A DNA stretch of 64,000 bases, from contig JACPQY010000011.1 in assembly GCA_016190245.1 (NCBI GenBank), positions 1 to 64,000 on the forward strand, in the 5' to 3' direction. Made by a program: the position numbers and the translations under genes. This DNA comes from Nitrospirota bacterium (GTDB taxonomy: Bacteria > JACPQY01). Of this stretch, positions 20,302-39,715 are shown one piece after another. The stretch's first letter is position 1. Every line of letters starts with the position of its first letter. The notes below the pieces were generated by a model that saw only the letters and a program-made list of their open reading frames with translations, searched no databases and was not told where the DNA came from.

Positions 20302-22203
20302 ATGGAGCTTGCCGTAGCTGAAGGATTGCACAGGATCGGCCCCGAAGGACATCTTCCGGAGCACCCCCAACCGGTTGACCAGCACATCGTCGAGATCGTC
20401 AGCGACTCCGGCGAGGGCGCTCAGACCGCCGGACAGTTGTTCGGCTCGATCAGTGCCCGGATGGGCAACGGCGTCTGGACGGTCGAGATCATCCCCGCCG
20501 AGATCGAGCCCCCGCCCCGGTCCCGCCCGGGCGCGAGCGGCAACCGGATCCGACTGGGGCGGACGCGAGTCACGAATTCGGGAGACACGGCAGACGTCAT
20601 GGTGGCCTTCAACGAGCAGGTCCTTTTCGGCCGCATAGACTCGGGCGCCCTGCGCCCCGGCTCGCGCGTGTTCATGGACAACAAGTGGGCCACGGACCCG
20701 CAACCCGAAATTCGCCAGCAGTACGCGGAGGCGCTCGAAGAATTCCGCAAGCGCGGCTATCTGGTCCAGGAGATACCCCTCGAGGAGGAATGCAAGCGGC
20801 TCGTACCCGACCCCCGCCGCGGCAAGAACATGTGGACTCTCGGCCTGTTGTGCTCCCTGTACCAGCGGGACATGAACATCGCCCGCGAAGAGGTCAAGCG
20901 CGTCTTTTCCAAGAAGAAAACGGATACGCTGGAGCGCAACTGGCAACTCGTTCAGGCCGGCTATGAGTGGGCCAACACCCACCTGCCTCTTCGCTACCAG
21001 ATTTCGGCCACCCCGAGCGCCGAGCCCACGGTGGTGATGAACGGCAACCAGGCCGTCGCCCTCGGCCTGATGGCGGCGGGCATAGACGTCGTCTCCATGT
21101 ATCCCATCACACCCGCCACCTCGGCCACCCATTATCTTGCGGGCGTCCTCGAGCGCGCGGGTGGCTTCATTCACCAGGCGGAGGACGAGATCGCCGCCGT
21201 CAACTTCGCCATCGGGGCCTCTTATGCGGGCCGCACGGCGGCGACGGTCACTTCGGGCCCCGGCCTCGCCCTCAAGACGGAGGCGCTGGGGCTGGCGGTC
21301 ATGGCGGAGATTCCGCTGGTGGTGGTCGTCGTCCAGCGCGGCGGTCCGTCCACGGGCCTGCCCACCAAGGTTGAACAAGGTGATCTCCTCGCCTCGATGT
21401 TCGGCCAACCCGGCGATGCACCGAAGATCGTCATGGCTCCTTCCACGATCGCAGAATGTTTCGAGTTCATGATCGAGGCCCGCAAGCTGGCCGAGACCTA
21501 CCGCGGCCCCGTGATCGTGCTCACGGATGCCAACCTCGCCACTGGGCAGCAACCTTTCCCGAGGCCGGACGTCCAGGAAAAAGACCTCGCGCCACCGATC
21601 CCCCAGTCTCCCTGGCCGCAGGGTCAGCCCCCCTACGCTTGGGATCCCGTCACGGGGCTCTCCCCGCGCCCGATCCCGGGCCAACTGAACGGCATCCATG
21701 TCGTGACGGGGTTGGCCCATGACGAGCACAGCCACGTCGCGTACGAATCGGGCACCAACCAGCGGTCCTCGGTGATGCGGAGCCGAAAGCTGGCGACTTT
21801 CTTCAGAACCCTGCGACCCCCCAAGATTTATCGCGAGCCCGAAGGCGACCTCCTCGTGGTCGGGTGGGGCTCGACCCGCGGGGCCATCGAGGAGGCGGTG
21901 GACCGCGTGCGCGACGAGGGAAAACGCGTGTCCGCCCTGCACCTGCGTTTCCTCTCCCCCCTCGAACCGGGCCTTCGTGAGATTTTCAGCCGCTTCAAGA
22001 AGGTCCTAACCGTCGAGATCAACTACAGCGACGATGGGCGTGACGAGGCGGTCCCGCCCGAAGCCCGACGGTACGGGCAGCTCGCTTGGCTGCTTCGCGG
22101 CAGCACGTTGGTGGACGTGGACTGCTGGACCCGCGTGCCCGGGCATCCCCTCCAGCCGTCGGAGATAGAAAACGAGCTCCGGCGGCAGCTCGATCTCGCG
22201 TAG
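20302..22203 (+). CDS. korA: 2-oxoacid:ferredoxin oxidoreductase, gamma-alpha fusion subunit
   Basis: 633 residues. Residues about 28-205 are the gamma (POR) domain (IVEIVSDSGEGAQTAGQLFG, VMVAFNEQVL). Residues about 245-430 are the pyrimidine-binding alpha domain (GNQAVALGLMAAG, YPITPAT, FIHQAEDEIAAVNFAIGAS, TSGPGLALKTEALGLA, GGPSTGLPTKVEQGDL). The C-terminus is the transketolase-like domain II. This is the KorA/OorA type that oxidises 2-oxoglutarate or another 2-oxoacid to acyl-CoA and reduces ferredoxin. It pairs with KorB 10 bases downstream. No separate delta ferredoxin subunit is seen. The ATG at 20302 lacks a good Shine-Dalgarno. Confidence 0.92.
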   Translation: MELAVAEGLHRIGPEGHLPEHPQPVDQHIVEIVSDSGEGAQTAGQLFGSISARMGNGVWTVEIIPAEIEPPPRSRPGASGNRIRLGRTRVTNSGDTADVMVAFNEQVLFGRIDSGALRPGSRVFMDNKWATDPQPEIRQQYAEALEEFRKRGYLVQEIPLEEECKRLVPDPRRGKNMWTLGLLCSLYQRDMNIAREEVKRVFSKKKTDTLERNWQLVQAGYEWANTHLPLRYQISATPSAEPTVVMNGNQAVALGLMAAGIDVVSMYPITPATSATHYLAGVLERAGGFIHQAEDEIAAVNFAIGASYAGRTAATVTSGPGLALKTEALGLAVMAEIPLVVVVVQRGGPSTGLPTKVEQGDLLASMFGQPGDAPKIVMAPSTIAECFEFMIEARKLAETYRGPVIVLTDANLATGQQPFPRPDVQEKDLAPPIPQSPWPQGQPPYAWDPVTGLSPRPIPGQLNGIHVVTGLAHDEHSHVAYESGTNQRSSVMRSRKLATFFRTLRPPKIYREPEGDLLVVGWGSTRGAIEEAVDRVRDEGKRVSALHLRFLSPLEPGLREIFSRFKKVLTVEINYSDDGRDEAVPPEARRYGQLAWLLRGSTLVDVDCWTRVPGHPLQPSEIENELRRQLDLA

Positions 22204-22213
22204 CGAGGGCTCC

Positions 22214-23167
22214 GTGTACGGACTGAAACAGGATTGGGGCCAGCGCACGCCGCCGCGCTATTTCTTTCTGGAAGACTACGTCAGCGACGTCCCGCGCTGG
22301 TGTTCGGGATGCGGCGATCATTCCGTGCTTGGGGCCCTCCAGCGCCTGGCGCGCGACGAACAGCTCGCCCCTGAAAAGACCGTGGTCGTCTCCGGCATCG
22401 GATGTTCGAGCCGCCTGCCGCACTACATGAAAACATACGGCTTCCACGGCCTTCACGGCCGGGCGCTCCCCATCGCCTGCGGTGTGCGCAGCCGCCGGCC
22501 GGACCTCGACGTGTTCGTCATCACCGGCGATGGCGATTGCTGCGCGATCGGCACGGGCCACTGGATACACGCCATCCGCTACAACATGAAAATGGCGGTC
22601 ATGCTCCTGGACAACAACATTTACGGCCTCACCAAGAAACAGACCTCGCCCACCACGAAGCTCAAGGGTCGCTCCAATACCCACCCCGACGGCTCGCCCC
22701 TGGACCCGATCAACCCCCTGTCCGTCACGCTGAGCGTGGCGAACGTGTCGTTTGTAGCGCAGACGATTGATTGGAACCCGCCGCACCTGTACGCCACGCT
22801 CCAGGCGGCGCACCGGCACCCGGGTTTCGCGTTCGTACGCGTCCTCCAGCGGTGCCCTCACTACACACCGGAGGTCTTCGAGCCCGTCCAGAAGGACCGA
22901 TCGCTCGTCCTCTACCTGTCGCACAAGAAGGGGATCCAAGTGGATGGAGCTGTCTCGAAATTGTTCAAGAACCAGGCCGAGCACGATCCCTCGAACCTGG
23001 CCGCGGCGCGCGCGGTGGCCGAGCGCGCGGACGCCTACCCCATCGGCCTGCTCTACCAGAAACCCGAAACTCCCCGATATGACCTCCTCTCGGCACGAGG
23101 CCTGGACACGCCGCCCGCCGCGAGGATCCAGGCGATCAACCGACTCCTCGACAGCTTCCAGATCTGA
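22214..23167 (+). CDS. korB: 2-oxoacid:ferredoxin oxidoreductase beta subunit
   Basis: 317 residues, GTG start after GCGAGGG. It holds the thiamine-diphosphate site: WCSGCGDHSVLGAL, SGIGCSSRLPHYM, GDGDCCAIGTGHWIHA and LLDNNIYGLTKKQTSPT, where the GDG...NN motif binds Mg and the diphosphate. The Cys residues in SGCG and GIGCS help hold the Fe-S cluster of this subunit family. Works with the alpha-gamma chain just upstream to make a two-subunit enzyme. Confidence 0.92.
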   Translation: MYGLKQDWGQRTPPRYFFLEDYVSDVPRWCSGCGDHSVLGALQRLARDEQLAPEKTVVVSGIGCSSRLPHYMKTYGFHGLHGRALPIACGVRSRRPDLDVFVITGDGDCCAIGTGHWIHAIRYNMKMAVMLLDNNIYGLTKKQTSPTTKLKGRSNTHPDGSPLDPINPLSVTLSVANVSFVAQTIDWNPPHLYATLQAAHRHPGFAFVRVLQRCPHYTPEVFEPVQKDRSLVLYLSHKKGIQVDGAVSKLFKNQAEHDPSNLAAARAVAERADAYPIGLLYQKPETPRYDLLSARGLDTPPAARIQAINRLLDSFQI

Positions 23168-23308
23168 GTCCCGTGCCATGCAGACGGGGCATCATCCTGG
23201 CTGCCGCGCGACTTGGTCGAGCGCCCCAAGGAGGCGGAGGCCGTCGTCGTGGATACCGAGGGACATCAGCATCTGAGCAAGGACTTCGATCGAAATGAAG
23301 GAGGAAAC

Positions 23309-26300
23309 ATGAAGCGCGCCGAAGCCAAACTCAGCGAGGGCGTGGAGCGGCCCTCCCCGGCCGTCGCCCGAGAGTCGGGGAAAGGCGTCACGAAGACCGA
23401 GGGCTCCAAGCCCAAGTATCCCGGAACCCTCCAGGCCATGGACGGGACGACCGCCGTGGTCGCCATGGAAACCGCGGCCTCCGAGGCCGCCGGCGCGTAC
23501 CCCATCACGCCTTCCACGCAGATGGGCGAGGGCTGGGCGGAAGCGGCCGCGGAAGGCCGACCCAACGTCTTCGGCCGCCGCCTCATCTTCTTCGAGCCCG
23601 AAGGCGAACACGCCGCGGCCGCCGTGACCGCGGGCCTGAGCCTCGTGGGCCTTCGCTCCGCCAACTTCTCCGCCGGTCAAGGAATCGCCTACATGCACGA
23701 ATCCCTCTATGCCGCTGTCGGCAAGCGCCTCACGTACGTCCTCAATGTCGCCGCCCGCGCGATGACCAAGCACGCCCTCAACATCCACTGCGCCCACGAC
23801 GACTACCACGCCGTGGACGACACGGGCTTTTTCCAGCTCTTCGCGAAAAACGCCCAGGAGGCGGCGGATCTCAACCTCATCGCCCACCGACTCGCCGAGC
23901 TGGCCCTCAACCCCGGACTTATCGCCCAGGACGGCTTCCTGACGAGCCACGTCCTCGAGACCCTGCACCTCCCCGAGCCCGAACTGGTGAGGGAATTTCT
24001 CGGCGCGCCGGAGGACATGATCGAGTCGCCCACCCCCGCACAGAAACTCATCTTCGGTGAGCACCGTCGCCGCATCCCCGAGCTCTTCGATCTCGACAAG
24101 CCCGCCGTCCTCGGCTCCGCGCAGAACCAGGAGAGCTACGCCCAGGGCGTGGCCGCGCAGCGCCCCTTCTTCTTCGATCATGTCGCCGGGCTCGCGGACC
24201 GAGCCTTCGACGAATTCGCGCGTCTCACCGGCCGGCACTATGCCCGCACAACGGGCTACCGCGTGGAAGATGCGGAGTACATCATTCTGGCCCAGGGGTC
24301 CGTGATACCCACGGCCGAGGTTCTCTGCGACCGGTTGCGCGAGGAAGGTCGGATCCGGGCCGGCGTGGTCAACCTCACCATGTTCCGTCCCTTTCCGGCG
24401 GATCTCATCACGTACCTGCTCAAGGGCAAGCGCGGCGTCGCCGTGCTCGAGCGCGTGGATCAGCCCCTCGCAGTGGACCCGCCGATGATGCGCGAGGTCC
24501 GTTCCGCCATCCTCAAGGCCCTCGAAAACGGCCGCGCGACCAAGGACCGCAGGCCGCACCCCTCTCTGGCCGCGTACCGGCCCGAGGACGCACCCGAATT
24601 CTACTCGGGATGTTTCGGGCTGGGCAGCCACGAGGTGCAATCCGGCGACCTCGTTGCCGCCCTCGAGAACATGCTCCCCGGCGGACACGGTCGCCGCCAG
24701 TTCTACCTCGGGATTGATTTCATCCGCGAAGGCACGCGCCACAAACAACTCGCCGAGTGGCAGGACAAGATCCGCAAGTTCTACCCCCACGTGGCCGATC
24801 TCAGCCTCCCCACAAGCGGTGAGATCCATCTCATGCCCAAGGACGCTCTCGCCCTTCGGATCCACTCTGTCGGCGGCTGGGGCGCCATCACGATGGGCAA
24901 GAACCTCGCCCTCCTCATGTTCGAAATGCTCGGTCTTCATATCAAAGCCAACCCCAAGTACGGCTCCGAGAAGAAAGGGCAACCCACGACATTCTCCGCC
25001 GTCGCCTCCTCCGAACCGATCCGGCCAAACGGGGAACTGCGGCGCGTGGACGTTGTTCTCTCACCGGATCCGAACTCCTTCCTCCACTCCAACCCGCTCG
25101 CCGGCCTGCGAGCCGAAGGAACCCTCGTCCTCCAGAGCGATCGCGAGCCCGAGGCCGCATGGCAAAGACTCCCGCGGTGGGCCCGCCAGACCATCCGCGA
25201 GCAACGCATCCAGCTCTTCGTCCTGGACGGTTTCAAGATCGCCCAGGCGGAGGCCTCCGATCCGGACCTGCGCTACCGCATGCAGGGGGCGGCCTTCCAA
25301 GGTGCCTTCCTCCGCATCACACCTCTCATGGGCCGCCACGGCATCTCGGAGCAAAGCCTGTTCGAACGCATCCGGCATCAGCTCGAGGAGAAATTCGGCA
25401 GCCGCGGCCCCCGCGTGGTCGAGGACAACTTCCGAGTGGTCCGCCGCGGATACGACGAGGTGCGCGAAATCAACTGGGCGTCGGTCGGAGATGCGAAAGC
25501 CGAGGAAGAGCGCCACGGTGTTGACATCGTCTGGCAGGGGCCGCCCTCGGCCATGGATGGCGAGGTCGCCGATCCACACCGCTTCCTGGGCCAGGTCTGC
25601 GAGTTGTATCGCTCGGGTGAAGACCCGATCGCCGAGCCCTTTTCCACCCTCGGCGCCATCCCGGCCGCCACGGGCGCCCTCCGAGACCTGAGCGGAATCC
25701 GCCTCGAGGTCCCCCAGTTTGTGGCCGAGAACTGCACCGGCTGCGGCCAATGCTGGGTCCAATGCCCGGACGCCGCCATCCCCGGCCTCGTCGTCGAGAT
25801 CGAATCCCTCCTCGAGACAGGGGCCCGCCTCGCGAACAAGAACGGAGGCGAACTGGCACGCTTCAAGACCCTCCTCCAGCCGCTTGCAAACGAGATCCGC
25901 ACGACGCTCACGAAGGAGCCCTTCGTGACCTTCCGCGACCTGCTGTGCAAGGCCTACGTCCGCGTGGCCCCCGCGCTGGATCTGAAACCGGAAGACCGCA
26001 CGGCCCTCAACGGAGAGTTCGACGCGGTGGCCTCGATCATCGCCGATCTCCCCCTGGCCCAGACGTCGGCCTTCTTCTCCATCCCCGAGCGCAAGGAAGC
26101 GCGCAGCGGCGGACTGCTCGCCGTCACGGTGAACCCCTATGCCTGCAAGGGATGCATGCTTTGTGTCGAGGTCTGCCCCGATAACGCCTTGGTCCGCGCC
26201 CGACAAGAGGATCACCTCCTCGACCCCATGCGCCACCAGTGGGCCGTCTGGGACGAGTTGCCGGACACGCCCAACCGCTTCCTGAAAGTGCGGGACATGA

Positions 26301-28387
26301 AACAAGGGATCGGCGTCCTCCACACCCTCCTTCTGAAAAAGAAGACCTACCGCTCGCTCGTGTGCGGCGATAGCGCCTGCATGGGCTGCGGTGAGAAAAC
26401 CGCCACGCACCTCATCGTCTCGGCCGTTGAAGCGGCGATGCAGGACCGCGTGGAGAGGTTCGTGAAACACCTCGATGAGCTTCTGGCCGGCCTCCAGGCC
26501 AAAACCGGCAGTCTCCCCGTGGAGGGCGCCGACGTCCGGACCGGCTCCGGGGCCCCCGTGCGTGCGGACGTCGATCTCCCGGGTGAGCCTCAACGGCGCC
26601 TCGACCGAATCCGTAGACTCCAAGAGCAGCTCAAGGATCTCAAGTGGCGCTACACGAACGGCCCGAGCGGGCGCGGGCGCGCCGCCCTTGGGATCGCGAA
26701 TGCCACGGGCTGCTCGAGCATCTGGGGCAGCACGTTCCCCTACAACCCGTACCCGTATCCCTGGGTGAATCACCTCTTCCAGGACTCCCCCTCGATCGCC
26801 ATCGGACTCTTCGAAGGCCTTATGCGCAAGATGGCGGACGCCTTCGCCGCCATCCGCCGCGCGGAGCTCGAAATCAAGGACGGGTACGATCCCTCCGTCC
26901 ACGAGAAGGAGTTCGCGGCCTTCGATTGGCAGAAGTTCACGGACGACGAGTTCATGCTCTGTCCGCCGATCTTTGCCATCGGCGGCGACGGGGCGATGCT
27001 GGACATCGGCTTCCAGAACCTCTCGCGCCTTCTCGCCTCCGGCAAACCCCTGCGCGTGATCGTGCTCGACACGCAGGTGTACTCGAACACCGGCGGTCAG
27101 GCCTCGACGGCGACCTTTGCGGGCCAGGTGGCGGACATGGCCGCCTTCGGCGGCGCCCAGCACGGCAAGACCGAGCAGCGCAAGGAGCTGAGCCTCCTCG
27201 CGATCGCCCACCGCGGGGCCTATGTCCTCCAAAGCTCGCAGGCCCTCCCATCGCACCTCATCGGCGGCGTCCTCCGCGGGCTCCACTCCCGGCGCCCCGC
27301 GGTGTTCAACATCTACACGCCCTGCCAACCGGAGCACGGCCTGCCGGACGACGGCTCCGAGAATGCGGCGAGGCTGGCGCTCGAAAGCCGGGCCTTCCCG
27401 TTCCTCATCTACGACCCGGATGGGGGCCCTTCCCTGGCGGACCGGCTGGACCTGGCGAGGAACCCGGACGCGGAGGCCCAGTGGCCGGCGTACAAGCTGG
27501 AGTACGTGGACGAGAAAGGCGAGAGCAAAACGATGTCGCTTCCGATGACCACGGCGGACTGGGCCGCGACGGAGATGCGCTTCGCGAAGCACTTCAAGAA
27601 GATCGCACCCGACACGCCGGCCGACCGCCTGGTGCCTTTCCACGAGTTCATCGCCCTGAAGACGAGCGACCGGGAGGGCAAGACTCCGTTCATCTACACA
27701 CTCAATGCGCAGAAGCGCCTCGACAAGCGCAGCGTGTCGCCCGAGATCGTCCGCCTGACCGAGGACCGGATGCATCTATGGGCCGAGCTCAAGGAGATGG
27801 CCGGGTTGAGCCCGGCCACGAAGGTTCGAGACGCCGTGGGAAAGGAAATCCAGGCGAAATACGAGCAGCAGCTCGCCGTCGCCCGCAAGGAGGCCGAGAC
27901 CGCACGCGCCACTTCGGAGGAAGAGACCGTCAAGCGGATCGTACAGGGCCTCTTGTCCTCGGCGGCGCCTCAGAGCGCGCCCGCGAAGCAACCCGCAGCG
28001 GCCGCCGCCGCGCCCGCGCCCAAGCCTGCCGCGCCCAAGGCCCCCCCCGCTTCCTCTCGCGGCAACGGGGCCTCCGTCGAGCCTCAAACCGCTCCCGTGC
28101 CTGCGGCCGCTGCCGCCGCTCCCAAGGCCGAGGCCGCGTCTTCCGAACCCCACATCGATTCGGCGCTGTGCACAACATGCGATGAATGCACCCGGCTCAA
28201 CCCGCGGATGTTCGTCTACAACGCGGACAAGCAGGCCTACATCAAGGACCCCCGCGCGGGGACCTACCAGGAACTGGTGCGCGCGGCCGAGTTGTGTCCC
28301 GCCTCCATCATCCACCCGGGAACGCCGCTCAACCCGAGCGAGAAAGACCTGGACCAGTGGACCAAGCGAGCCGAACCGTTCCGGTAG
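23309..28387 (+). CDS. Very large pyruvate:ferredoxin oxidoreductase-like protein with C-terminal ferredoxin domain
   Basis: 1,692 residues from the ATG at 23309, which has AAGGAGGAAAC upstream; a longer frame from 23213 is open. Domain order: pyrimidine domain (about 40-230, AAGAYPITPSTQMGEGW), domain II (to about 420), gamma domain (about 510-720, VGGWGAITMGKNLA), dicluster ferredoxin domain with CTGCGQCWVQCP (about 809) and CKGCMLCVEVCP (about 945), and TPP domain (about 1020-1360, CMGCGEKTATH, GIANATGCSSIWGST, GGDGAMLDIGFQN). Then come an extra helical region, an Ala/Pro-rich linker (about 1552-1614) and a last single-cluster ferredoxin domain (CTTCDEC near 1620, then LCPAS). NifJ-type enzymes are about 1,170 residues, so this is far longer. 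nuoA starts 20 bases downstream, which suggests it feeds electrons to that complex. Confidence 0.88.
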   Translation: MKRAEAKLSEGVERPSPAVARESGKGVTKTEGSKPKYPGTLQAMDGTTAVVAMETAASEAAGAYPITPSTQMGEGWAEAAAEGRPNVFGRRLIFFEPEGEHAAAAVTAGLSLVGLRSANFSAGQGIAYMHESLYAAVGKRLTYVLNVAARAMTKHALNIHCAHDDYHAVDDTGFFQLFAKNAQEAADLNLIAHRLAELALNPGLIAQDGFLTSHVLETLHLPEPELVREFLGAPEDMIESPTPAQKLIFGEHRRRIPELFDLDKPAVLGSAQNQESYAQGVAAQRPFFFDHVAGLADRAFDEFARLTGRHYARTTGYRVEDAEYIILAQGSVIPTAEVLCDRLREEGRIRAGVVNLTMFRPFPADLITYLLKGKRGVAVLERVDQPLAVDPPMMREVRSAILKALENGRATKDRRPHPSLAAYRPEDAPEFYSGCFGLGSHEVQSGDLVAALENMLPGGHGRRQFYLGIDFIREGTRHKQLAEWQDKIRKFYPHVADLSLPTSGEIHLMPKDALALRIHSVGGWGAITMGKNLALLMFEMLGLHIKANPKYGSEKKGQPTTFSAVASSEPIRPNGELRRVDVVLSPDPNSFLHSNPLAGLRAEGTLVLQSDREPEAAWQRLPRWARQTIREQRIQLFVLDGFKIAQAEASDPDLRYRMQGAAFQGAFLRITPLMGRHGISEQSLFERIRHQLEEKFGSRGPRVVEDNFRVVRRGYDEVREINWASVGDAKAEEERHGVDIVWQGPPSAMDGEVADPHRFLGQVCELYRSGEDPIAEPFSTLGAIPAATGALRDLSGIRLEVPQFVAENCTGCGQCWVQCPDAAIPGLVVEIESLLETGARLANKNGGELARFKTLLQPLANEIRTTLTKEPFVTFRDLLCKAYVRVAPALDLKPEDRTALNGEFDAVASIIADLPLAQTSAFFSIPERKEARSGGLLAVTVNPYACKGCMLCVEVCPDNALVRARQEDHLLDPMRHQWAVWDELPDTPNRFLKVRDMKQGIGVLHTLLLKKKTYRSLVCGDSACMGCGEKTATHLIVSAVEAAMQDRVERFVKHLDELLAGLQAKTGSLPVEGADVRTGSGAPVRADVDLPGEPQRRLDRIRRLQEQLKDLKWRYTNGPSGRGRAALGIANATGCSSIWGSTFPYNPYPYPWVNHLFQDSPSIAIGLFEGLMRKMADAFAAIRRAELEIKDGYDPSVHEKEFAAFDWQKFTDDEFMLCPPIFAIGGDGAMLDIGFQNLSRLLASGKPLRVIVLDTQVYSNTGGQASTATFAGQVADMAAFGGAQHGKTEQRKELSLLAIAHRGAYVLQSSQALPSHLIGGVLRGLHSRRPAVFNIYTPCQPEHGLPDDGSENAARLALESRAFPFLIYDPDGGPSLADRLDLARNPDAEAQWPAYKLEYVDEKGESKTMSLPMTTADWAATEMRFAKHFKKIAPDTPADRLVPFHEFIALKTSDREGKTPFIYTLNAQKRLDKRSVSPEIVRLTEDRMHLWAELKEMAGLSPATKVRDAVGKEIQAKYEQQLAVARKEAETARATSEEETVKRIVQGLLSSAAPQSAPAKQPAAAAAAPAPKPAAPKAPPASSRGNGASVEPQTAPVPAAAAAAPKAEAASSEPHIDSALCTTCDECTRLNPRMFVYNADKQAYIKDPRAGTYQELVRAAELCPASIIHPGTPLNPSEKDLDQWTKRAEPFR

Positions 28388-28407
28388 CGCGTCGGTAGCC
28401 TCCATCC

Positions 28408-28896
28408 ATGAGCCCCCGTCTCTCGTTTGACCTCGCCGTTGTCTTTGGCTTCCTCCTCGTCAGCGCCGCGCTGCTGTGGGTCCTCCTCGCGTTCGGCAAG
28501 CTCGTGCGGATGCGAAGGCCGATCGGCGACAAGCTGACGACCTACGAGTGCGGTGAACGGCCGTTCGGCTCGGCGTGGTTCAGCTTCAACAACCGCTTCT
28601 ACGTCATCGCGCTCGTTTTCGTGGCGTTCGACGTGCAGGTGGCGCTGGCGGTGCCGGCGGTCGTGGTGTTCCGCCGCCTCCTCCAGGGAGAGGGGGCCGG
28701 CCTCGTGTTCGGAGTCTTGTTCGTCTACCTCGGCCTCATGATGCTGGCGCTGGCCTACGTCTGGCGGCACGGCGACCTGGGCTGGGTGCGCGAGCTGCGC
28801 AACAGAGGGCCTGCGGCCGCGGATCCGCGCGAGGCCGCAACCGTGCCCGCGCCTGCGGTCAACGAGGCGCCCGAGCAGGCGGGAGGAAATGCCTGA
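28408..28896 (+). CDS. nuoA: NADH-quinone oxidoreductase-type subunit A
   Basis: 162 residues with three transmembrane helices. Signature residues: TTYECGERPFGSAWF in the long loop and IALVFVAFDVQVAL in helix 2. NuoA lies at the junction of the membrane and peripheral arms and lines the quinone site. The C-terminal 35 residues are an Ala/Pro-rich extension. It is the first of eleven nuo genes, 20 bases after the PFOR-like gene. nuoB overlaps its end by 8 bases. Confidence 0.95.
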   Translation: MSPRLSFDLAVVFGFLLVSAALLWVLLAFGKLVRMRRPIGDKLTTYECGERPFGSAWFSFNNRFYVIALVFVAFDVQVALAVPAVVVFRRLLQGEGAGLVFGVLFVYLGLMMLALAYVWRHGDLGWVRELRNRGPAAADPREAATVPAPAVNEAPEQAGGNA

Positions 28897-29479: not shown

Positions 29480-29486
29480 GGATGAG

Positions 29487-30011
29487 GTGAAACCCGAAGA
29501 GATCCGAGACAAACTCACCGCTTCACTCGGGGCCGCCGAATACACTCCCGGGCCTGGCGATGCGGCCATCACCGTGCCGGTGGACAGGTGGCACGAGGCG
29601 GCAACCGTTCTGCGCCGCGACCCCGACCTGGACTTCGACTTCCTGCGCAGTCTCTCGGGCGTCGACAGGCCCGCGGTGGGCAAGATCGAGGTGGTCTGTC
29701 ACCTCCTGAGCTACCGCCACCGCCACACCATCGTCCTCAAGACAGGGATCGACCGATCCGCGCCCGCCGTCCCCACTCTCAGCGACGTGTGGCCCGCAGC
29801 CAACTGGCACGAGCGCGAGCTGTACGACCTCTTCGGCGTGAACGTCACCTCGCACCCGGACCTGCGGCGCCTTCTGCTCCCCGAGGATTGGGTCGGCCAC
29901 CCCCTCCGCAAAGACTACAAGGAGCCCGACTCCTACCGCGGCATCCCCATGCAGCGGCCCCAAACGGCCGCGGAGGCCGTCACGCCACCCGCGGCGCCGG
30001 AGAAGCCCTGA
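29487..30011 (+). CDS. nuoC: NADH-quinone oxidoreductase-type subunit C
   Basis: 174 residues with GTG start (GATGAG just upstream). The 30-kDa subunit signature WPAANWHERELYDLFGVNV is followed by LRRLLLPEDWVGHPLRKDY. NuoC is a peripheral-arm protein that supports NuoD and NuoB. It is separate from nuoD here, not fused as in E. coli. Its TGA overlaps the nuoD ATG (TGATG). Confidence 0.95.
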   Translation: MKPEEIRDKLTASLGAAEYTPGPGDAAITVPVDRWHEAATVLRRDPDLDFDFLRSLSGVDRPAVGKIEVVCHLLSYRHRHTIVLKTGIDRSAPAVPTLSDVWPAANWHERELYDLFGVNVTSHPDLRRLLLPEDWVGHPLRKDYKEPDSYRGIPMQRPQTAAEAVTPPAAPEKP

Positions 30012-31135
30012 TGGCCGTCGCCATCCCGCACCGCGAAGAGCTGATGCTCAACATGGGGCCGCATCACCCCTCCACGCACGGGGTGCTGCGCTTCATTCTG
30101 CACACGGATGGCGAGGTCATGCGCAAGGCCGTGCCGGACGTCGGCTATCTGCACCGGGGCATCGAAAAGATCGCCGAGCGCCAACCCTTCGCAGGTTTCG
30201 TGCCGTTCACCGATCGCGTCAACTATCTCGAGGCGATCTTCGCCAATCAGGCCTACGCCTTGGCGGTCGAGCGGCTCGCCGGCATCCAAGTGCCGCCGCG
30301 CGCGGAGTATCTCCGCGTCATCGCCGCGGAGCTCAATCGCATCGCGAGCCACCAGATCTCGATCGGCTCCGTCTCCATGGACATCGGCGCGTACACCCCC
30401 TTCCTCTACCTGCTGCGCGAGCGGGAGAAGATCAACGATCTCTTCGAGGCCCTGTGCGGCCAGCGGCTCACCTTCAACTACCTGCGCCTCGGCGGCGTCG
30501 CGTTCGACGTCAAGGACGAGTGGTTGCGTCGCCTGGAGGCCTTCCTCGATCATTTCGAGCCGGCGATCGACGAGTTCAACTCTCTCATTTCCGCCAACGA
30601 AATCTTCGTGAAACGCCTCGCGCACGTTGCGCCGATCTCCGCGGCGGACGCCGTGGGCTACGGCCTCGTCGGCCCCAACCTGCGCGCGAGCGGGGTGGAT
30701 TGGGACCTCAGGCGCGACCAGCCCTACGGCATCTACCCCGAGCTGGAATTCGACGTGCCGGTCGGCAGGGGCATTCGGGGCGAAGTCGGCGACTGCTACG
30801 ACCGCTTCTGGCTGCGTGTGGAGGAGATGCGCCAGAGCTGCCGCCTCCTGCGCCAGGCCGTGGCCAAGCTCCCGGCGGGAGACGTCTGCGCCAAGGTCCT
30901 CCGCAAGCTCAAACTTCCCGCAGGGGAGGCCTACGGCTGCGTCGAGGGGGCGCGCGGCGAGCTCGGTTTCTACGTGGTGACTGACGGCACCGACAAACCC
31001 TACCGCGTCAAGATCCGCTCGGGTTCGTTTGCGGCCCTGAGCATCATCGAACATCTCAGCCGCGGCTTGATGATCGCCGATCTCGTTGCGGTCATCGCCA
31101 CATTGGACGTCCTCGCGCCGGAGATGGACCGCTGA
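30011..31135 (+). CDS. nuoD: NADH-quinone oxidoreductase-type subunit D
   Basis: 374 residues, the 49-kDa subunit that forms the quinone pocket with NuoB. Conserved parts: LNMGPHHPSTHGVLR (His that contacts quinone), DVGYLHRGIEK, SHQISIGSVSMDIGAYTPF, GVDWDLRRDQPYG, GDCYDRFWLRVEEMRQS and the ending SIIEHLSRGLMIADLVAVIATLD region. A longer open frame starts inside nuoC but the ATG at 30011 fits the family length. nuoH starts 3 bases downstream. Confidence 0.96.
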   Translation: MAVAIPHREELMLNMGPHHPSTHGVLRFILHTDGEVMRKAVPDVGYLHRGIEKIAERQPFAGFVPFTDRVNYLEAIFANQAYALAVERLAGIQVPPRAEYLRVIAAELNRIASHQISIGSVSMDIGAYTPFLYLLREREKINDLFEALCGQRLTFNYLRLGGVAFDVKDEWLRRLEAFLDHFEPAIDEFNSLISANEIFVKRLAHVAPISAADAVGYGLVGPNLRASGVDWDLRRDQPYGIYPELEFDVPVGRGIRGEVGDCYDRFWLRVEEMRQSCRLLRQAVAKLPAGDVCAKVLRKLKLPAGEAYGCVEGARGELGFYVVTDGTDKPYRVKIRSGSFAALSIIEHLSRGLMIADLVAVIATLDVLAPEMDR

Positions 31136-31138
31136 GCC

Positions 31139-32422
31139 ATGCAGCTCCTCGCCGAACGCATCGCAACGTGGCTCGGGATGGAGGGCTTACCCCGCCAGGC
31201 GGTCGTGGCCGGAGTCGTCCTGGTGGTGGCGCTCGTCGTCGCGACGGTCGTCCTCACCATCGCCGGGATCCTCACCTGGGCTGAGCGCCGCGTGGCCGGC
31301 CGCACGCAAAGCCGCGTTGGCCCCAACCGCGTCGGGCCACTCGGTTTCCTCCAGTGGGTCGCCGATGGCATCAAGCTCATCACCAAAGAAGACGTCATCC
31401 CGGCGGCAGCCGACCGGACGCTCTTTCGCCTGGCGCCGTACCCGGTCATCGTCGGCATCTTTGCCGCCTTTGCTTCCGTTCCGTTCGGACAGAAACTCAT
31501 CGCTGCCGATCTGAATGTGGGCGTTCTGTACCTGATGGCCATCACGTCGCTCGTGGTCGTCGGCGTGCTCATGGCCGGCTGGGCCTCGAACAACAAGTGG
31601 GCCCTGCTGGGCGGGGTTCGGTCCGCGGCCCAGATCGTCTCCTACGAGGTGCCGTCCGTGCTCGCGGCGCTCTCCGTGGTGCTGCTCGCGGGGACGCTGT
31701 CCCTGCAGGGCATCATCGGCAAGCAGGGCGGCTGGCCGTGGGAGTGGTACCTCTTCTACAACCCGTTCACGTTCGTCGCCTTCTTCCTGTTCTTCACGTC
31801 CGCGGTGGCCGAGGGTAACCGCACGCCCTTCGACCTCCCCGAGGCCGAAAGCGAGCTCGTGGCCGGCTACAACGTCGAGTACTCGGGGATGCGCTTCGCA
31901 GGCTTCTTCCTCGGCGAGTTCGCCAACGTGTACCTGCTGAGCGCCATTGCCACCGCGCTGTTCTTCGGCGGCTGGCAGATCCCGGGAGTGACGCCCGACA
32001 TGCAGGCGGCTTCACCCGTGTGGCAGGCCGTGGGCGTCGGCCTGTTCGCGCTCAAGGCCGGCACGGGGGCCTTTGTCGTTCTGTGGCTGCGGTGGACCAT
32101 GCCGCGACTGCGCGTGGATCAGCTCATGGGCCTCTGCTACCGCTACCTCCTGCCGCTCTCCTTCGCGATGCTGCTCGGCAATGCCGCCTATGTGTGGCTC
32201 GTTCCCCAATGGGCCGCCTGGGTTGTGCAGGGGGCGACGACCACCGTGGGGTTGGCGGTCGCCGGGGTATTCGTCAGGCGCGTGTTCTATCACATCCGGC
32301 ACGTGGGGGATGACGTGAGCCTCGACCTGGCCCGCGGCGAATCGGGCACGTTTGATCCCCAATTGCAGGTGCGCGTCTACGGCGCCTTCCGTCGCCGACA
32401 CGCCGGGGACTCCGCCTCATGA
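31139..32422 (+). CDS. nuoH: NADH-quinone oxidoreductase-type subunit H
   Basis: 427 residues with about nine transmembrane helices. Landmarks: LTWAERRVAGRTQSRVGPN, QWVADGIKLITKEDV and AEGNRTPFDLPEAESELVAGYNVEYSG, the latter shown by its Glu-rich loop near the quinone tunnel. NuoH links the quinone site to the proton-pumping subunits. The C-terminus is about 70 residues longer than in E. coli, with a charged tail. nuoI overlaps by 4 bases. Confidence 0.95.
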   Translation: MQLLAERIATWLGMEGLPRQAVVAGVVLVVALVVATVVLTIAGILTWAERRVAGRTQSRVGPNRVGPLGFLQWVADGIKLITKEDVIPAAADRTLFRLAPYPVIVGIFAAFASVPFGQKLIAADLNVGVLYLMAITSLVVVGVLMAGWASNNKWALLGGVRSAAQIVSYEVPSVLAALSVVLLAGTLSLQGIIGKQGGWPWEWYLFYNPFTFVAFFLFFTSAVAEGNRTPFDLPEAESELVAGYNVEYSGMRFAGFFLGEFANVYLLSAIATALFFGGWQIPGVTPDMQAASPVWQAVGVGLFALKAGTGAFVVLWLRWTMPRLRVDQLMGLCYRYLLPLSFAMLLGNAAYVWLVPQWAAWVVQGATTTVGLAVAGVFVRRVFYHIRHVGDDVSLDLARGESGTFDPQLQVRVYGAFRRRHAGDSAS

Positions 32423-33102
32423 GGGCGTTCATCGAGTACTTCGCCGCCATCGGGCGGACGGTGGTGACCCTGGGGGACGGGCTCGCGGTGACGGGCTCGT
32501 ATTTCCTGCGTCGCCCGGTGACCCTTCAGTATCCGGACCGGACGGAGAAACCCATGGTGGCGCTTCTCCCAGAGCGATCGCGCGGCATGCTCGAGGTGGA
32601 CCTCGACCGCTGCCCGGGCTGCACCGCGTGTGAGACGGCCTGCCCTATCGGCTGTATCCGCATCGAAGTCTCCAAAGGCAAGCCCCGCCTGATCACCCGC
32701 TTCGACATTGATCTCGGCAGGTGCATGAACTGCGGCCTGTGCTCGGAACCCTGCCCCACGGAGTGCCTGAAACACACGAAGGAGTTCGAGGGCGGCATGT
32801 ACAAGCCCGACCTGCTGCTCATTCACTTTGTCGAGCAGCCGGTGCCCGTGGCCCCCGTGAAGAAAGGCGAGCCGGGTCCGCCGCCGAAACCCCTGGGCTC
32901 CATCCTCCGCCGCCTGCTCACCGATCCCTACGGTCGCAAGCGCCCTGCGCCGGCACCCGCGCCGGCCGCAGCGGCGAGCGCCCCGGCCCCTCCGGTGGCC
33001 GTTGCGGCTCCGCAGCCGGTGTCCGCGAGCACGCCTCCGGTGTCGGCGACGCCAAGCGCGGCTCCCCCTTCGACGCCGGCCACATCCGGAGGGCCCTCAT
33101 GA
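32419..33102 (+). CDS. nuoI: NADH-quinone oxidoreductase-type subunit I (dicluster ferredoxin)
   Basis: 227 residues. Two [4Fe-4S] motifs: CPGCTACETACPIGCI and CMNCGLCSEPCPTECL, which carry clusters N6a and N6b. In complexes without NuoEFG this subunit is the likely entry point for electrons from ferredoxin. The last 55 residues or so are almost only Ala, Pro, Ser, Thr and Val, a disordered tail absent from most NuoI proteins. The stop overlaps the nuoJ start (ATGA). Confidence 0.95.
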   Translation: MRAFIEYFAAIGRTVVTLGDGLAVTGSYFLRRPVTLQYPDRTEKPMVALLPERSRGMLEVDLDRCPGCTACETACPIGCIRIEVSKGKPRLITRFDIDLGRCMNCGLCSEPCPTECLKHTKEFEGGMYKPDLLLIHFVEQPVPVAPVKKGEPGPPPKPLGSILRRLLTDPYGRKRPAPAPAPAAAASAPAPPVAVAAPQPVSASTPPVSATPSAAPPSTPATSGGPS

Positions 33103-33620
33103 CGTATCTCAGCCTCCCCGATCTCGTCTTCTACGGTGTCGCCGCCGTGAGTGTGACCAGCGCCGCTTTCGCGGTCTTCTCGCGCAACATCGTGCGCGCC
33201 GTCTTCTCGCTGCTGGCCACCTTCTTCGGCGTCGCCGTGATCTACGGTATGCTCGCGGCCGACTTCGTGGCCGTCGTACAGGTCATGGTCTATGTGGGCG
33301 GCATCCTCGTCCTCATGCTCTTCGCCGTGATGCTGACGAGCCAAATCGAGAACGTGGAGCGATCCAACCCGGCCGGCGGCTGGGGCTTTGCCTTGCTCCT
33401 CGGTATCGCCGTGTGTGTCCTCCTGGTCTCGGTGGCGATCGAGGCGCCCTGGCGGCAGGTGACTCCTCCCGCCGAGGCGACACCCACGACCGTCGCCCTG
33501 GGCGAGGCCCTGCTCGGGCCCCTCGTCCTGCCGCTCGTCACCGTGGGTCTCCTGCTCCTGGGCACGGTCATCGGGGCCGTCACACTCACGCGTCGCCGGA
33601 ACGATCCTGGAGTGAACTAG
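33099..33620 (+). CDS. nuoJ: NADH-quinone oxidoreductase-type subunit J
   Basis: 173 residues with five transmembrane helices. The conserved helix 3 region reads VVQVMVYVGGILVLMLFAVML, given here as the YVGGILVLMLF core. NuoJ contributes to the proton-coupling helices near NuoH. A longer open frame begins inside nuoI, but the ATG at 33099 that overlaps the nuoI stop is the natural start. nuoK begins right after its TAG. Confidence 0.94.
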   Translation: MTYLSLPDLVFYGVAAVSVTSAAFAVFSRNIVRAVFSLLATFFGVAVIYGMLAADFVAVVQVMVYVGGILVLMLFAVMLTSQIENVERSNPAGGWGFALLLGIAVCVLLVSVAIEAPWRQVTPPAEATPTTVALGEALLGPLVLPLVTVGLLLLGTVIGAVTLTRRRNDPGVN

Positions 33621-33932: not shown

Positions 33933-33941
33933 TCAACCGCC

Positions 33942-36080: not shown

Positions 36081-36092
36081 CGGAGGCCGCTC

Positions 36093-37709
36093 ATGATCGA
36101 GACGCAAACAACCTTGCTCACCTGGATGACTTTCACGCCGCTCATCGGCGTGGCCGCTATCGGCCTGCTCCTCATGGCGCGGCCGCTCCTTGGGCTGAGC
36201 CAAAGGGCCGTGGACCATGGCGCGCGCCTCCTTGCCCTGCTCACCACCCTGCCGTCGCTGGCGCTCTCTTATGTGATGTGGCGCGATTTCGACGGGGCCG
36301 CGGGCGGCGTTCAGTTCGTCCACCACACCCCATGGATCCGCGCCTTCAACATCGAATACTTCATGGGCGTGGACGGTCTGAGCGTCACCATGGTGATGCT
36401 CACGGCCCTGATCTCCTCGGTCGCCGTCATCGCCTCCATGCCCTGGGGCATCGCCCGGGACGATTCTCACCACTTTTCGCGCCGCCAGGTTCCGGGCTAC
36501 ATGGCCCTCCTGCTCCTCCTCGAGACGGGCATGTTCGGCGTCTTCTGCGCCCTCGACTTCTTCCTCTTCTACGTCCTTTGGGAGCTCGTGCTCCTCCCGA
36601 TGTACTTCCTCATCGGCATCTGGGGCGGCCCGAGGCGGGAGTACGCCGCCATCAAGTTCTTCCTCTACACGCTGGCCGGCTCCGTGCTCATGCTCCTCGG
36701 CATGATCGCGCTCTACTACGCGAGCGAGCCGACCACGCTCGTGGACGGCACTGCGGCCGCCCATACCTTCAACATGCTCAAGCTCGCCGAGCAAGCGAAC
36801 CGCTTCGAGCTGATGGCGCCCATCCTCGGCTTGCCCTTCACCAAGGTCGTCTGGGTGGGGATGTTCATCGCCTTCGCCATCAAGGTGCCGATGTTCCCCT
36901 TCCACACGTGGCTGCCGGACGCCCACGTGGAGGCGCCGACGCCGATCTCGGTCCTCCTGGCCGGCGTCCTCCTGAAGATGGGCCCCTACGGCATGCTGCG
37001 CGTCAACTATCCCATCCTGCCCGAGGCCACGTTGTGGGCCCAGTGGGGCGTCGCAATCTTCGGCGCCATCAACATCGTCTACGCCGCCTTTGTCTGCATG
37101 GCGCAGAAGGACCTCAAGAAGCTCATCGCCTACTCCTCGGTGAGCCACATGGGTTTCGTGCTCCTGGGGATGGCGGCCTTTACGCCGCAGGGCATCTCGG
37201 GCGCCGTCTACCAGATGTGGAACCACGGGATCATCAGCCCAGCGCTGTTCTTGATTGCGGGGGTGATCTACGACCGCGCGCACCACCGCGAGATCGAGGG
37301 CTTCGGCGGCCTGTCGAAGAATCTCCCCGAGTACACGGCGATCACGGGCCTCGCCTTCATGGCCTCCCTGGGCCTTCCGGGGCTCAACGGGTTTATCAGT
37401 GAGGCGCTGGTCTTGGTCGGCGCCTTCCCGGTCTTCAAGGTGATCACGATCGTCTCCGCGAGCGGCGTGATCATCACCGCGGCCTACTACCTCCTCACCA
37501 TGCAGCGCGTGTTCCTCGGCAAACTGAACGAGAAATACGCGGCGCTGCGCGATCTCAACTGGCGCGAACGGCTGACGCTCTACCCGCTGGTCGCCCTCAT
37601 GGTCGTCCTCGGCTTCTATCCCATGCCGATTCTCGACCTCATGAACCCCACCCTGCACTCGCTGGTCCTCCCGTTCGCGCAGAGGACCGGTCTCGTGACA
37701 GGCCCCTGA
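36093..37709 (+). CDS. nuoM: NADH-quinone oxidoreductase-type subunit M (antiporter-like)
   Basis: 538 residues, about 14 helices. Key parts: FNIEYFMGVDGLSVTMV, LLLLETGMFGVFCALDFFLFYVLWELVLLPMYFLIG (Glu in WELVLLPM is the pump Glu), KVPMFPFHTWLPDAHVEAPTPIS with its conserved Lys and His, and LIAYSSVSHMGFVLLG. 12 bases separate it from nuoL and 15 from nuoN. Confidence 0.96.
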   Translation: MIETQTTLLTWMTFTPLIGVAAIGLLLMARPLLGLSQRAVDHGARLLALLTTLPSLALSYVMWRDFDGAAGGVQFVHHTPWIRAFNIEYFMGVDGLSVTMVMLTALISSVAVIASMPWGIARDDSHHFSRRQVPGYMALLLLLETGMFGVFCALDFFLFYVLWELVLLPMYFLIGIWGGPRREYAAIKFFLYTLAGSVLMLLGMIALYYASEPTTLVDGTAAAHTFNMLKLAEQANRFELMAPILGLPFTKVVWVGMFIAFAIKVPMFPFHTWLPDAHVEAPTPISVLLAGVLLKMGPYGMLRVNYPILPEATLWAQWGVAIFGAINIVYAAFVCMAQKDLKKLIAYSSVSHMGFVLLGMAAFTPQGISGAVYQMWNHGIISPALFLIAGVIYDRAHHREIEGFGGLSKNLPEYTAITGLAFMASLGLPGLNGFISEALVLVGAFPVFKVITIVSASGVIITAAYYLLTMQRVFLGKLNEKYAALRDLNWRERLTLYPLVALMVVLGFYPMPILDLMNPTLHSLVLPFAQRTGLVTGP

Positions 37710-37724
37710 GACCGGAGGCGGACG

Positions 37725-39224
37725 GTGCCGACCCTCGAAAGCCTGCCCCACGTCCTTCCCGAGGTGGCGCTCGCGGTCACCGCTGCGGCCCTGTTCGTCC
37801 TCGAAGCCCTGTGGCAGCCCCGGGGCCGAGCACGGCGCGTTGGGTTTCCGCTCTTGGCGCTGGGGGGCCTGCTCGCGGCGCTGCTGTTCCTCGTCGCCTC
37901 GCCATCCTCGGCGGAGCCGCGGTTCTTTGGCGGCCTCCTGACCCAGGATCCCTTCTCGACGTTCGTGCGCGGCGTCGCCATCGTCGCCACCGCCCTCGCC
38001 GTGGGGCTCGCTCTGGGAAGCCCCTCGCTGCCGTCGAATCGCCGCGTCGAGTATCACGGCCTCTTGGTCCTGCTCGCGCTCGGCATGTGCCTCCTCTCGA
38101 GTGCCGGTCACCTGCTCATGATCTACGTGGCCATCGAGATCGTGAGCCTCACGTCCTACCTCCTCGCCGGCTTCGACGACCGCGGTGGGCGTTCGGCCGA
38201 GGCCGGCCTCAAGTACGTGCTCTTCGGTGGCGTCGCCTCCGGCGTGATGTTGTTCGGCTTCTCCCTGCTCTTCGGCCTCTTCGGCGACCTGTCGCTCTCA
38301 GGCCTCGGCCAGGCACTCGCGCACTCGACCACACTCTCGACGGGCGCCGGTCGCTGGGCGACGCTCCTGGCGCTCGTCTTCGTGCTCGCAGGCCTCGGCT
38401 TCAAGATCGCCGCGGTGCCCTTCCATATGTGGTGTCCCGATGTCTACGAAGGGGCGCCGACGCCCTTCACGGCCCTGCTCTCCGTGGGCCCGAAGGCGGC
38501 GGGCTTCGCGGTGCTGTTACGCTTCGGCACCGGCCTGTGGCCCGAGCTCGCGACCGACGCCGCCGCGGCAACGAGTGCGCTCCCGTGGCTCCTCCTCCTG
38601 GGCGTGATGTCCACGGTCACGATGACGGTCGGCAATCTCGCCGCTATCTGGCAGGACAATCTCAAGCGGCTGCTCGCATACTCGAGCATCGCGCACGCGG
38701 GCTACATGCTCATGGGCGTGGTGGCGGGCGGCCGGGAGGGCCCGGGCGCCGTGGCGGTCTACCTGGCCGTCTACCTGATCATGAACATCGGGGCCTTCGC
38801 CGTGGTCTCCGCCGTGGATCGCTCGGCGCACAGCGAGGACATCGGCGTCTACCACGGCCTCGGACGGCGGGCCCCGCTCCTCGCCCTGGCCATGGCGGTG
38901 TTTCTCCTCTCGCTCACGGGACTTCCACCCACGGCGGGATTCGTGGGCAAGCTGTACCTCTTCGCCTCGCTCATCCATCACGGCGGCTTCTGGTACGTGC
39001 TGCTCGCCGTGGTGGGCGTTCTCAACAGCGTCGTGTCGCTCTATTTCTACGCCCGCGTACTCAGGGCCATGTTCCTTGAGAGCGCGGCCGGCGAGCCCGC
39101 GCCGGTGAGTCTCGCCAACTCGGCGGCGGCGCTCGCGGTCGTTCTCGCCGTCCCGACTCTCGCCCTCGGGATCTTCTGGCAGCCGCTGGCCGCCATCGCC
39201 AATTTCTCCGGCTCCCTCTTCTGA
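37725..39224 (+). CDS. nuoN: NADH-quinone oxidoreductase-type subunit N (antiporter-like)
   Basis: 499 residues, GTG start. Features: YVAIEIVSLTSYLLAGF (pump Glu), EAGLKYVLFGGVASGVMLFG, KIAAVPFHMWCPDVYEGAPTPFTALLS in its central stretch and RLLAYSSIAHAGYMLMG. It is the last nuo gene. No nuoE, nuoF or nuoG exists in the cluster, so the complex lacks an NADH-oxidising module. Confidence 0.96.
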   Translation: MPTLESLPHVLPEVALAVTAAALFVLEALWQPRGRARRVGFPLLALGGLLAALLFLVASPSSAEPRFFGGLLTQDPFSTFVRGVAIVATALAVGLALGSPSLPSNRRVEYHGLLVLLALGMCLLSSAGHLLMIYVAIEIVSLTSYLLAGFDDRGGRSAEAGLKYVLFGGVASGVMLFGFSLLFGLFGDLSLSGLGQALAHSTTLSTGAGRWATLLALVFVLAGLGFKIAAVPFHMWCPDVYEGAPTPFTALLSVGPKAAGFAVLLRFGTGLWPELATDAAAATSALPWLLLLGVMSTVTMTVGNLAAIWQDNLKRLLAYSSIAHAGYMLMGVVAGGREGPGAVAVYLAVYLIMNIGAFAVVSAVDRSAHSEDIGVYHGLGRRAPLLALAMAVFLLSLTGLPPTAGFVGKLYLFASLIHHGGFWYVLLAVVGVLNSVVSLYFYARVLRAMFLESAAGEPAPVSLANSAAALAVVLAVPTLALGIFWQPLAAIANFSGSLF

Positions 39225-39620: not shown

Positions 39621-39715
39621 GAACTCCCCTCCTTTGTAAGGAGGGGAAAGGGGAGGTAGAGGCCGCCGGCGGGCTCTACCCCACCCAACCTCCCCTTACA
39701 AAGGGGAGGAGATTT
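39621..39715. repeat. Nested inverted repeat (MITE-like)
   Basis: The left arm 39621-39661 (AACTCCCCTCCTTTGTAAGG... ending GGGGAGGTAGAG) is the near complement of the right arm 39674-39715 (CTCTACCCC...CCCCTTACAAAGGGGAGG). Each arm also folds on itself. This type of CCTCCCCTTACAAAGGGGAGG element is widespread in bacterial genomes. Confidence 0.6.

What the first reader, a model, noticed from the sequence alone, without database searches (positions are those of the whole stretch)
20302..39224. 2-oxoacid oxidoreductases encoded beside a complex I that lacks its NADH module
Seen: korA, korB, a giant PFOR-like gene, then nuoABCDHIJKLMN on one strand; 20 bases separate PFOR and nuoA; nuoE, nuoF and nuoG are absent from the cluster. 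Known: 11-subunit complexes can accept electrons from ferredoxin or flavodoxin. Inferred: the locus encodes a 2-oxoacid to quinone route in which PFOR/Kor reduce ferredoxin and complex I oxidises it while pumping protons.
Basis: partly seen in the sequence, partly recalled or inferred. Interest (0 to 1): 0.8.

Follow-up and report, generated by a model that had tools for sequence, protein, structure and literature searches.

The report
Ferredoxin-tailed PFOR joined to complex I
In this uncultured bacterium, a pyruvate-oxidising enzyme that carries its own ferredoxin on a flexible tail, which other bacteria pair with the Rnf ion pump, is instead followed directly by an eleven-subunit respiratory complex I that has no NADH-reading part, and this names a likely electron donor for that type of complex I.

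Summary
In detail: korA, korB, a giant PFOR (likely start 23309; 1692 aa) and nuoABCDHIJKLMN lie on one strand, with 20 bp between PFOR and nuoA and no nuoE, F or G. NuoF and NuoG are not found in the genome and NuoE only as one sub-cut-off fragment, but the assembly is 84.8% complete. The EFG-less nuo cluster itself is common (19 of 20 fetched regions). The PFOR ends in a disordered linker and a mono-[4Fe-4S] ferredoxin domain. That ferredoxin-tailed PFOR is widespread in many phyla; in 55 of 56 testable loci rnfC follows it directly, and nuo never does. This genome has no detectable RnfD, and nuo occupies the Rnf position. A decayed piece of the PFOR tail lies just after nuoN. Best reading: the membrane acceptor of a conserved PFOR-Kor module was exchanged from Rnf to 11-subunit complex I, giving a 2-oxoacid to tethered ferredoxin to NuoI to quinone route. 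Genes and synteny are shown; electron transfer, its direction and Kor's substrate are inferred. It is a new variant of known parts, seen in one genome, and bears on the open question of what feeds 11-subunit complex I.

The parts
20302..22203 (+). korA: 2-oxoacid:acceptor oxidoreductase alpha (gamma+alpha fused), 633 aa
   Evidence: TIGR03710 531.8 bits over cut-off 482.75; POR_N, POR; about 50-63% identical to korA of the PFOR-Rnf clusters
22214..23167 (+). korB: 2-oxoacid:acceptor oxidoreductase beta, 317 aa
   Evidence: TIGR02177 224.6 bits, below cut-off 261.9; TPP_enzyme_C, PFO_beta_C
23309..28387 (+). Ferredoxin-tailed PFOR, 1692 aa (open frame from 23213): domains I, II, III, two [4Fe-4S] motifs with a helical insert, TPP-binding domain VI with a coiled-coil insert, helix, linker, ferredoxin tail
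   Evidence: phmmer to 6cin 2.1e-90 and 1b0p 4.2e-79
27962..28132 (+). Disordered Pro/Ala-rich linker of the PFOR (about 57 residues)
   Evidence: AlphaFold pLDDT under 50 at model residues 825-881 of a model starting at window 25490, preceded by a 48-residue helix
28154..28315 (+). Tail ferredoxin domain of the PFOR (CxxCxxC...CP)
   Evidence: PF13370 Fer4_13 37.3 bits; phmmer to Desulfovibrio africanus ferredoxin I 1dax, 6.3e-06; model pLDDT 77-91
28408..28896 (+). nuoA, 162 aa, 20 bases after PFOR
   Evidence: PF00507 80.9 bits
28889..29479 (+). nuoB, 196 aa; Cys ligands CC...C...C intact
   Evidence: TIGR01957 198.5 over 142.7; alignment with E. coli
29487..30011 (+). nuoC, 174 aa
   Evidence: TIGR01961 132.3 over 122.45
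30011..31135 (+). nuoD, 374 aa
   Evidence: NF004739 440.7 over 360; start from the TGATG overlap
31139..32422 (+). nuoH, 427 aa
   Evidence: NF004741 333.9 over 305; PF00146
32419..33102 (+). nuoI, 227 aa, eight [4Fe-4S] cysteines, Pro/Ala-rich C-terminal tail
   Evidence: TIGR01971 88.8 bits, below cut-off 113.05; alignment; tail also in relatives
33099..33620 (+). nuoJ
   Evidence: PF00499 111.5 bits
33621..33932 (+). nuoK
   Evidence: PF00420 82.6 bits
33942..36080 (+). nuoL
   Evidence: PF00361, PF00662
36093..37709 (+). nuoM
   Evidence: PF00361
37725..39224 (+). nuoN
   Evidence: PF00361
39407..39471 (+). Relic of a second PFOR ferredoxin tail, cut off after CTTCDECTRINPRMFAYNANK, with a stop codon in the linker part before it
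   Evidence: 85% DNA identity over 65 bases to 28167-28231, E 4e-17; 7 synonymous and 3 non-synonymous codon changes in 21 codons

Best explanation
The locus encodes a 2-oxoacid:quinone route. PFOR (and probably KorAB) oxidises 2-oxoacids with TPP and CoA. Electrons pass through the PFOR's internal [4Fe-4S] clusters to a ferredoxin domain tethered by a helix and a flexible linker. That domain delivers them to the exposed NuoI-side clusters of an 11-subunit complex I with no NADH module, which reduces quinone and pumps ions. The arrangement is a swapped form of a widespread PFOR-Kor-Rnf module in which the nuo operon replaced rnf as the membrane acceptor. Shown: gene content, order, intact Fe-S ligands, ferredoxin tail, near-universal Rnf linkage elsewhere, no RnfD found here. 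Inferred: co-transcription, docking, electron transfer, forward direction, and the order of the swap.
For: Contiguous same-strand order with a 20-bp PFOR-nuoA gap and no terminator- or promoter-like site there. All Fe-S cysteines of NuoB and NuoI present. No NuoF or NuoG in the genome and NuoE only as a sub-cut-off fragment. Same PFOR type followed by rnfC in 54 of 56 loci by rule, 55 with L177 where rnfC overlaps the PFOR end; none followed by nuo; rnfC, D, G, E, A and B identified by Pfam. No RnfD/NqrB in G000 or G001, while controls ring. Tail is a mono-[4Fe-4S] ferredoxin close to D. africanus ferredoxin I, on a linker with pLDDT under 50. The PFOR groups with the Rnf-linked PFORs with support 100 and 99. 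PFOR-tail relic beyond nuoN. No E1-alpha type pyruvate dehydrogenase found; cbb3-type oxidase present. PFOR was proposed from proteomics as donor to the 11-subunit enzyme of Desulfitobacterium (PMC11238625). C. jejuni complex I uses flavodoxin (cited in PMC6682613).
Against: Only one genome shows this junction, from an 84.8% complete assembly. No biochemical or transcript data. The AU test does not reject trees in which this PFOR branches outside the Rnf-linked group (p 0.23 and 0.295), so the direction of the swap is favoured, not proven. A 2-oxoglutarate dehydrogenase E1 is present, so Kor is not the only 2-oxoglutarate route. The AceE type of pyruvate dehydrogenase was not tested. The tail ferredoxin is equally present with Rnf, so it is not a special adaptation to complex I. 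No obvious ribosome-binding site precedes nuoA.
Confidence: 0.65

Rival explanations
1. The electron flow runs backwards: complex I uses the proton gradient to push electrons from quinol to the ferredoxin tail, and PFOR and Kor fix CO2 reductively, as was proposed for Nitrospina.
For: PFOR and OGOR type enzymes are reversible (general knowledge), and an unusual complex I was proposed to reduce ferredoxin in Nitrospina gracilis (PMC3578206).
Against: A 2-oxoglutarate dehydrogenase E1 and a cbb3-type oxidase are present, which suits an oxidative cycle. ATP-citrate lyase was not tested here.
Confidence: 0.13
2. The PFOR and nuo genes are merely neighbours (or share a promoter for joint control); PFOR passes electrons to soluble ferredoxin for other uses, and complex I takes electrons from another donor.
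For: Only one genome has the junction. The 19 related 11-gene nuo clusters have no PFOR upstream of nuoA. A Dehalococcoidia locus (L117) has the same PFOR with neither rnf nor nuo next to it.
Against: The position filled is the one that Rnf, a ferredoxin-using pump, fills in 55 of 56 loci, and no RnfD was found. A different PFOR lies directly after nuoN in G081 and G222, a second PFOR-nuo link.
Confidence: 0.14
3. A canonical NADH module is encoded in the unassembled 15% and this is an ordinary NADH:quinone complex I split across the genome.
For: Completeness is 84.8%. The family genome G001 does hold nuoE, nuoF and nuoG, on other contigs than its nearest nuo cluster.
Against: The closest relatives of this NuoD sit in 11-gene clusters without E, F or G between D and H. 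In G001 the nuoC-E-F-H piece is a separate set from the cluster nearest to this one.
Confidence: 0.08

Closest known systems
[quoted passage not shown] Desulfitobacterium hafniense
   Same: Same 11 genes, no NADH module, Fe-S ligands of NuoB and NuoI kept
   Different: Here a PFOR with its own ferredoxin lies directly upstream in the same run of genes; in D. hafniense the donor is unknown and PFOR is a candidate by co-expression only (PMC11238625)
korAB - rnfB - PFOR - rnfCDGEA clusters, e.g. Gemmatirosa, Marivirga, Allomuricauda, Rubripirellula
   Same: Same KorA (about 50-63% identical) and the same ferredoxin-tailed PFOR (up to 63% identical over the core)
   Different: rnf genes are absent here and nuo genes take their place; the small gene between korB and rnfB is also missing
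Campylobacterota complex I with nuoX and nuoY
   Same: Complex I that does not use NADH and is fed from 2-oxoacid oxidation by a small carrier protein (PMC6682613)
   Different: No gene stands in place of nuoE or nuoF here, nuoG is absent too, and a carrier domain is fused to the PFOR
Homodimeric PFOR (Desulfovibrio africanus 1b0p, Moorella 6cin)
   Same: Domains I, II, III, ferredoxin domain and TPP domain in the same order
   Different: About 500 residues longer: helical inserts, long C-terminal helix, linker and an extra ferredoxin domain

Membership tests
[quoted passage not shown]
[quoted passage not shown]
   nuoD followed directly by nuoH
[quoted passage not shown]
   No match for NuoF or NuoG, one sub-cut-off match for NuoE, in an 84.8% complete assembly
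[quoted passage not shown]
   Alignment with E. coli
[quoted passage not shown]
   Needs biochemistry
Homodimeric PFOR, NCBIfam TIGR02176 equivalog | Score over the curated cut-off of 911.35 | tested here: not met
   407.9 bits: a member of the wider OFOR superfamily, not of this equivalog
2-oxoacid:ferredoxin oxidoreductase superfamily | POR_N, PFOR_II, POR, TPP_enzyme_C domains over Pfam cut-offs | tested here: met
   157.9, 50.1, 91.1 and 24.7 bits
2-oxoacid:ferredoxin oxidoreductase superfamily | Substrate is pyruvate | not testable with these tools
   Sequence similarity only
Ferredoxin-tailed PFOR subfamily (described here) | C-terminal linker plus mono-[4Fe-4S] ferredoxin domain | tested here: met
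   conserved in the loci listed
PFOR-Rnf cluster | rnfC directly downstream and rnfB upstream of PFOR | tested here: not met
   nuoA downstream, korB upstream; no RnfD in the genome
KorAB | KorA over TIGR03710 cut-off; KorB over TIGR02177 cut-off | tested here: inconclusive
   KorA 531.8 over 482.75; KorB 224.6 under 261.9
Campylobacterota NuoX/NuoY complex I | nuoX and nuoY in place of nuoE and nuoF | tested here: not met
   No gene between nuoD and nuoH

The most novel reading that the evidence does not exclude
PFOR and 11-subunit complex I form a physical 2-oxoacid:quinone supercomplex in which the PFOR's tethered ferredoxin replaces the NADH module, and the PFOR-Kor module is a donor unit that plugs into different ion pumps (Rnf or complex I).
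Probability: 0.3. Interest if true: 0.85.

Novelty: new variant of a known kind. Interest (0 to 1): 0.62.

Why it matters
What donates electrons to the 11-subunit complex I is an open question; an earlier search for a common donor protein failed, and it was suggested that the complex is a docking platform for several donors (PMC11238625). This locus names one donor with its carrier attached, and gives a natural comparison in which the same donor is joined to Rnf elsewhere. It also shows that ferredoxin-tailed PFORs are a wide family in which Rnf linkage is nearly universal. No paper on this cluster turned up in the held library, which lacks most subscription journals.

Tried and rejected
One 400-genome search with the PFOR failed and was replaced by a 300-genome search with its last 475 residues. 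The E. coli NuoF query at first suggested 'nuoF-like' genes after PFOR; Pfam showed the one tested to be RnfC, which shares the Complex1_51K domain. The Pro/Ala tail of NuoI looked like a match to the PFOR linker, but Ala- or charge-rich NuoI tails are common in the 11-gene clade, so it is not used as evidence. A codon comparison of the relic was first read out of frame and redone. The NuoD-like complex on G000:C71 was considered as another ferredoxin sink; its large subunit has no CxxC motif, so it is not a standard NiFe hydrogenase. The weaker E1_dh hits on C37 and C53 are transketolase halves, not pyruvate dehydrogenase. A plasmid DNA search gave only distant matches.
Full report
What is there. 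The window is G000:C83:1-64000 of an 84.8% complete assembly of 3.29 Mb in 86 contigs. Its phylum holds only one other genome in the collection, G001, of the same family. On the + strand lie korA 20302-22203, korB 22214-23167, a giant PFOR ending at 28387, and nuoA 28408 through nuoN 39224. Neighbouring nuo genes overlap or lie a few bases apart. The PFOR frame opens at 23213, but a GGAGGA site just before ATG 23309 marks the likely start. G+C stays at 0.65-0.69 from korA to nuoN and falls to 0.56 beyond 40500, so nothing in composition suggests a chimeric join at the junction.

The complex I. nuoE, nuoF and nuoG are not in the cluster. In the whole assembly NuoF (PF01512) and NuoG (PF10588) give no match and NuoE (PF01257) one match below its cut-off. 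G001 has nuoE and nuoF on contig C4 and nuoG on C6, apart from its cluster nearest to ours. All Fe-S cysteines of NuoB and NuoI are present. This cluster type is common: of the twenty regions fetched around the best NuoD relatives, nineteen show 11-gene style clusters (some cut by the end of the region) with nuoD followed by nuoH and no E, F or G between them; in the twentieth (L201) only nuoD was detected. L187 carries in addition a second, divergent set with a NuoG-like gene. None of the nineteen has a PFOR before nuoA. So the missing NADH module by itself is not the news.

The PFOR. It has the usual domains and matches Moorella and Desulfovibrio africanus PFOR structures, but falls below the TIGR02176 equivalog cut-off, 407.9 against 911.35 bits. 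It is about 500 residues longer. The model of residues 760-1724 (numbered from 23213; mean pLDDT 76.5) shows a helical insert between the two [4Fe-4S] motifs, a coiled-coil insert, a 48-residue helix, a stretch of about 57 residues with pLDDT under 50, and a well-predicted C-terminal domain. That domain is a mono-[4Fe-4S] ferredoxin (PF13370), closest among solved structures to D. africanus ferredoxin I, from the same organism as the 1b0p PFOR. The enzyme therefore brings its own ferredoxin on a tether.

The family and its normal partner. A survey of 290 genomes found relatives of this C-terminal part in 42, including about fifteen with long PFORs or PFOR-like genes bearing the tail. Of the loci with at least 1.2 kb beyond the tail, 54 of 56 have rnfC next by rule; in one of the two others (L177) rnfC overlaps the PFOR end; the last, L117 from a Dehalococcoidia, has neither rnf nor nuo. 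None has nuo. rnfB lies before PFOR in Gemmatimonadota-like loci and after rnfA in Bacteroidota. Pfam confirms RnfC, D, G, E, A and B in Allomuricauda profundi. Gemmatirosa kalamazoonensis, a named isolate, has the full korAB-rnfB-PFOR-rnfCDGEA order. G000 and G001 have no RnfD/NqrB.

The swap. In trees of 98 and 35 PFORs, G000 is sister to the Gemmatimonadota-type Rnf-linked clade, with support 100 and 99. By parsimony Rnf is the older partner. The AU test, however, does not reject trees that place G000 outside (p 0.23 and 0.295), and G000 has a long branch, so the direction is favoured, not proven. A broken piece of the ferredoxin tail lies after nuoN at 39407-39471, 85% identical in DNA to 28167-28231, with seven synonymous and three conservative changes in 21 codons. 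One reading is that the nuo genes entered at the 3' end of PFOR and left a partial duplicate behind; another is that a second tail-bearing gene once stood there. This is inference. A second, different PFOR-nuo link exists: in G081 and G222 (same family) another PFOR subclade, without the tail, follows nuoN.

How it probably works. Pyruvate, and perhaps 2-oxoglutarate through KorAB, is oxidised with TPP and CoA; electrons pass along the PFOR's clusters to the tethered ferredoxin, which can reach an acceptor many nanometres away; with the NADH module absent, NuoI's N6a and N6b clusters should be the entry point; electrons pass to NuoB's N2 and quinone while the membrane arm pumps. The first steps follow from established PFOR chemistry, the last from established complex I structure; the contact between them is inferred. 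The genome has a cbb3-type oxidase, a 2-oxoglutarate dehydrogenase E1, and no detected E1-alpha type pyruvate dehydrogenase. The reverse direction, CO2 fixation by reversed electron flow as proposed in Nitrospina (PMC3578206), is the main rival on direction.

What is known. The donor of the 11-subunit enzyme is described as an open question; PFOR is a candidate in Desulfitobacterium by co-expression (PMC11238625). In Campylobacterota nuoEF are replaced by nuoXY and flavodoxin or ferredoxin is the likely donor (PMC6682613). Searches of the held library for Rnf with PFOR in aerobes, and for PFOR with nuo, found no description of this cluster; that library lacks most subscription journals, so prior description cannot be excluded.

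Verdict. Observation confirmed with small corrections.

Noticed in passing
L092:5567-10120, L096 (G081, G222:C17): A different PFOR subclade of about 1517 aa, without ferredoxin tail, lies directly after nuoN of an 11-gene nuo cluster: a second PFOR-complex I link.
   Followed up: partly
L088:7116-9281, L073:16081-17601, L081:6247-10395, L176:24158-24941: Degenerate PFOR-like genes that follow korAB; in L088, L073 and L081 the ferredoxin tail is kept while catalytic motifs appear lost, possibly scaffolds (L176 is cut off by the end of the locus).
   Followed up: partly
L117:1839-8245: Dehalococcoidia locus with the ferredoxin-tailed PFOR but neither rnf nor nuo beside it; a small membrane-like protein and a nitroreductase-like gene follow.
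   Followed up: partly
L031:8097-15644 (G000:C71) and L032:8106-15511 (G001:C41): Hydrogenase-4-like membrane complex; in G000 the large subunit lacks every CxxC motif, so it is unlikely to be a NiFe hydrogenase; possible other ferredoxin-linked pump.
   Followed up: partly
window 39624-39711: 88-base imperfect palindrome (77% self-complementary) just after the relic; 39768-39838 also matches 63559-63627. May be mobile-element or structured repeats.
   Followed up: no
L118:21433-24768 and L143:409-4270: A second rnf gene set close to the PFOR-Rnf cluster.
   Followed up: no
window 18860-20152: FAD-dependent oxidoreductase (DAO family) on the same strand, about 150 bp before korA; relation to the cluster unknown.
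   Followed up: no
L187 (G176:C6): Two nuo clusters back to back on opposite strands: one 11-gene type and one divergent with a NuoG-like gene.
   Followed up: no
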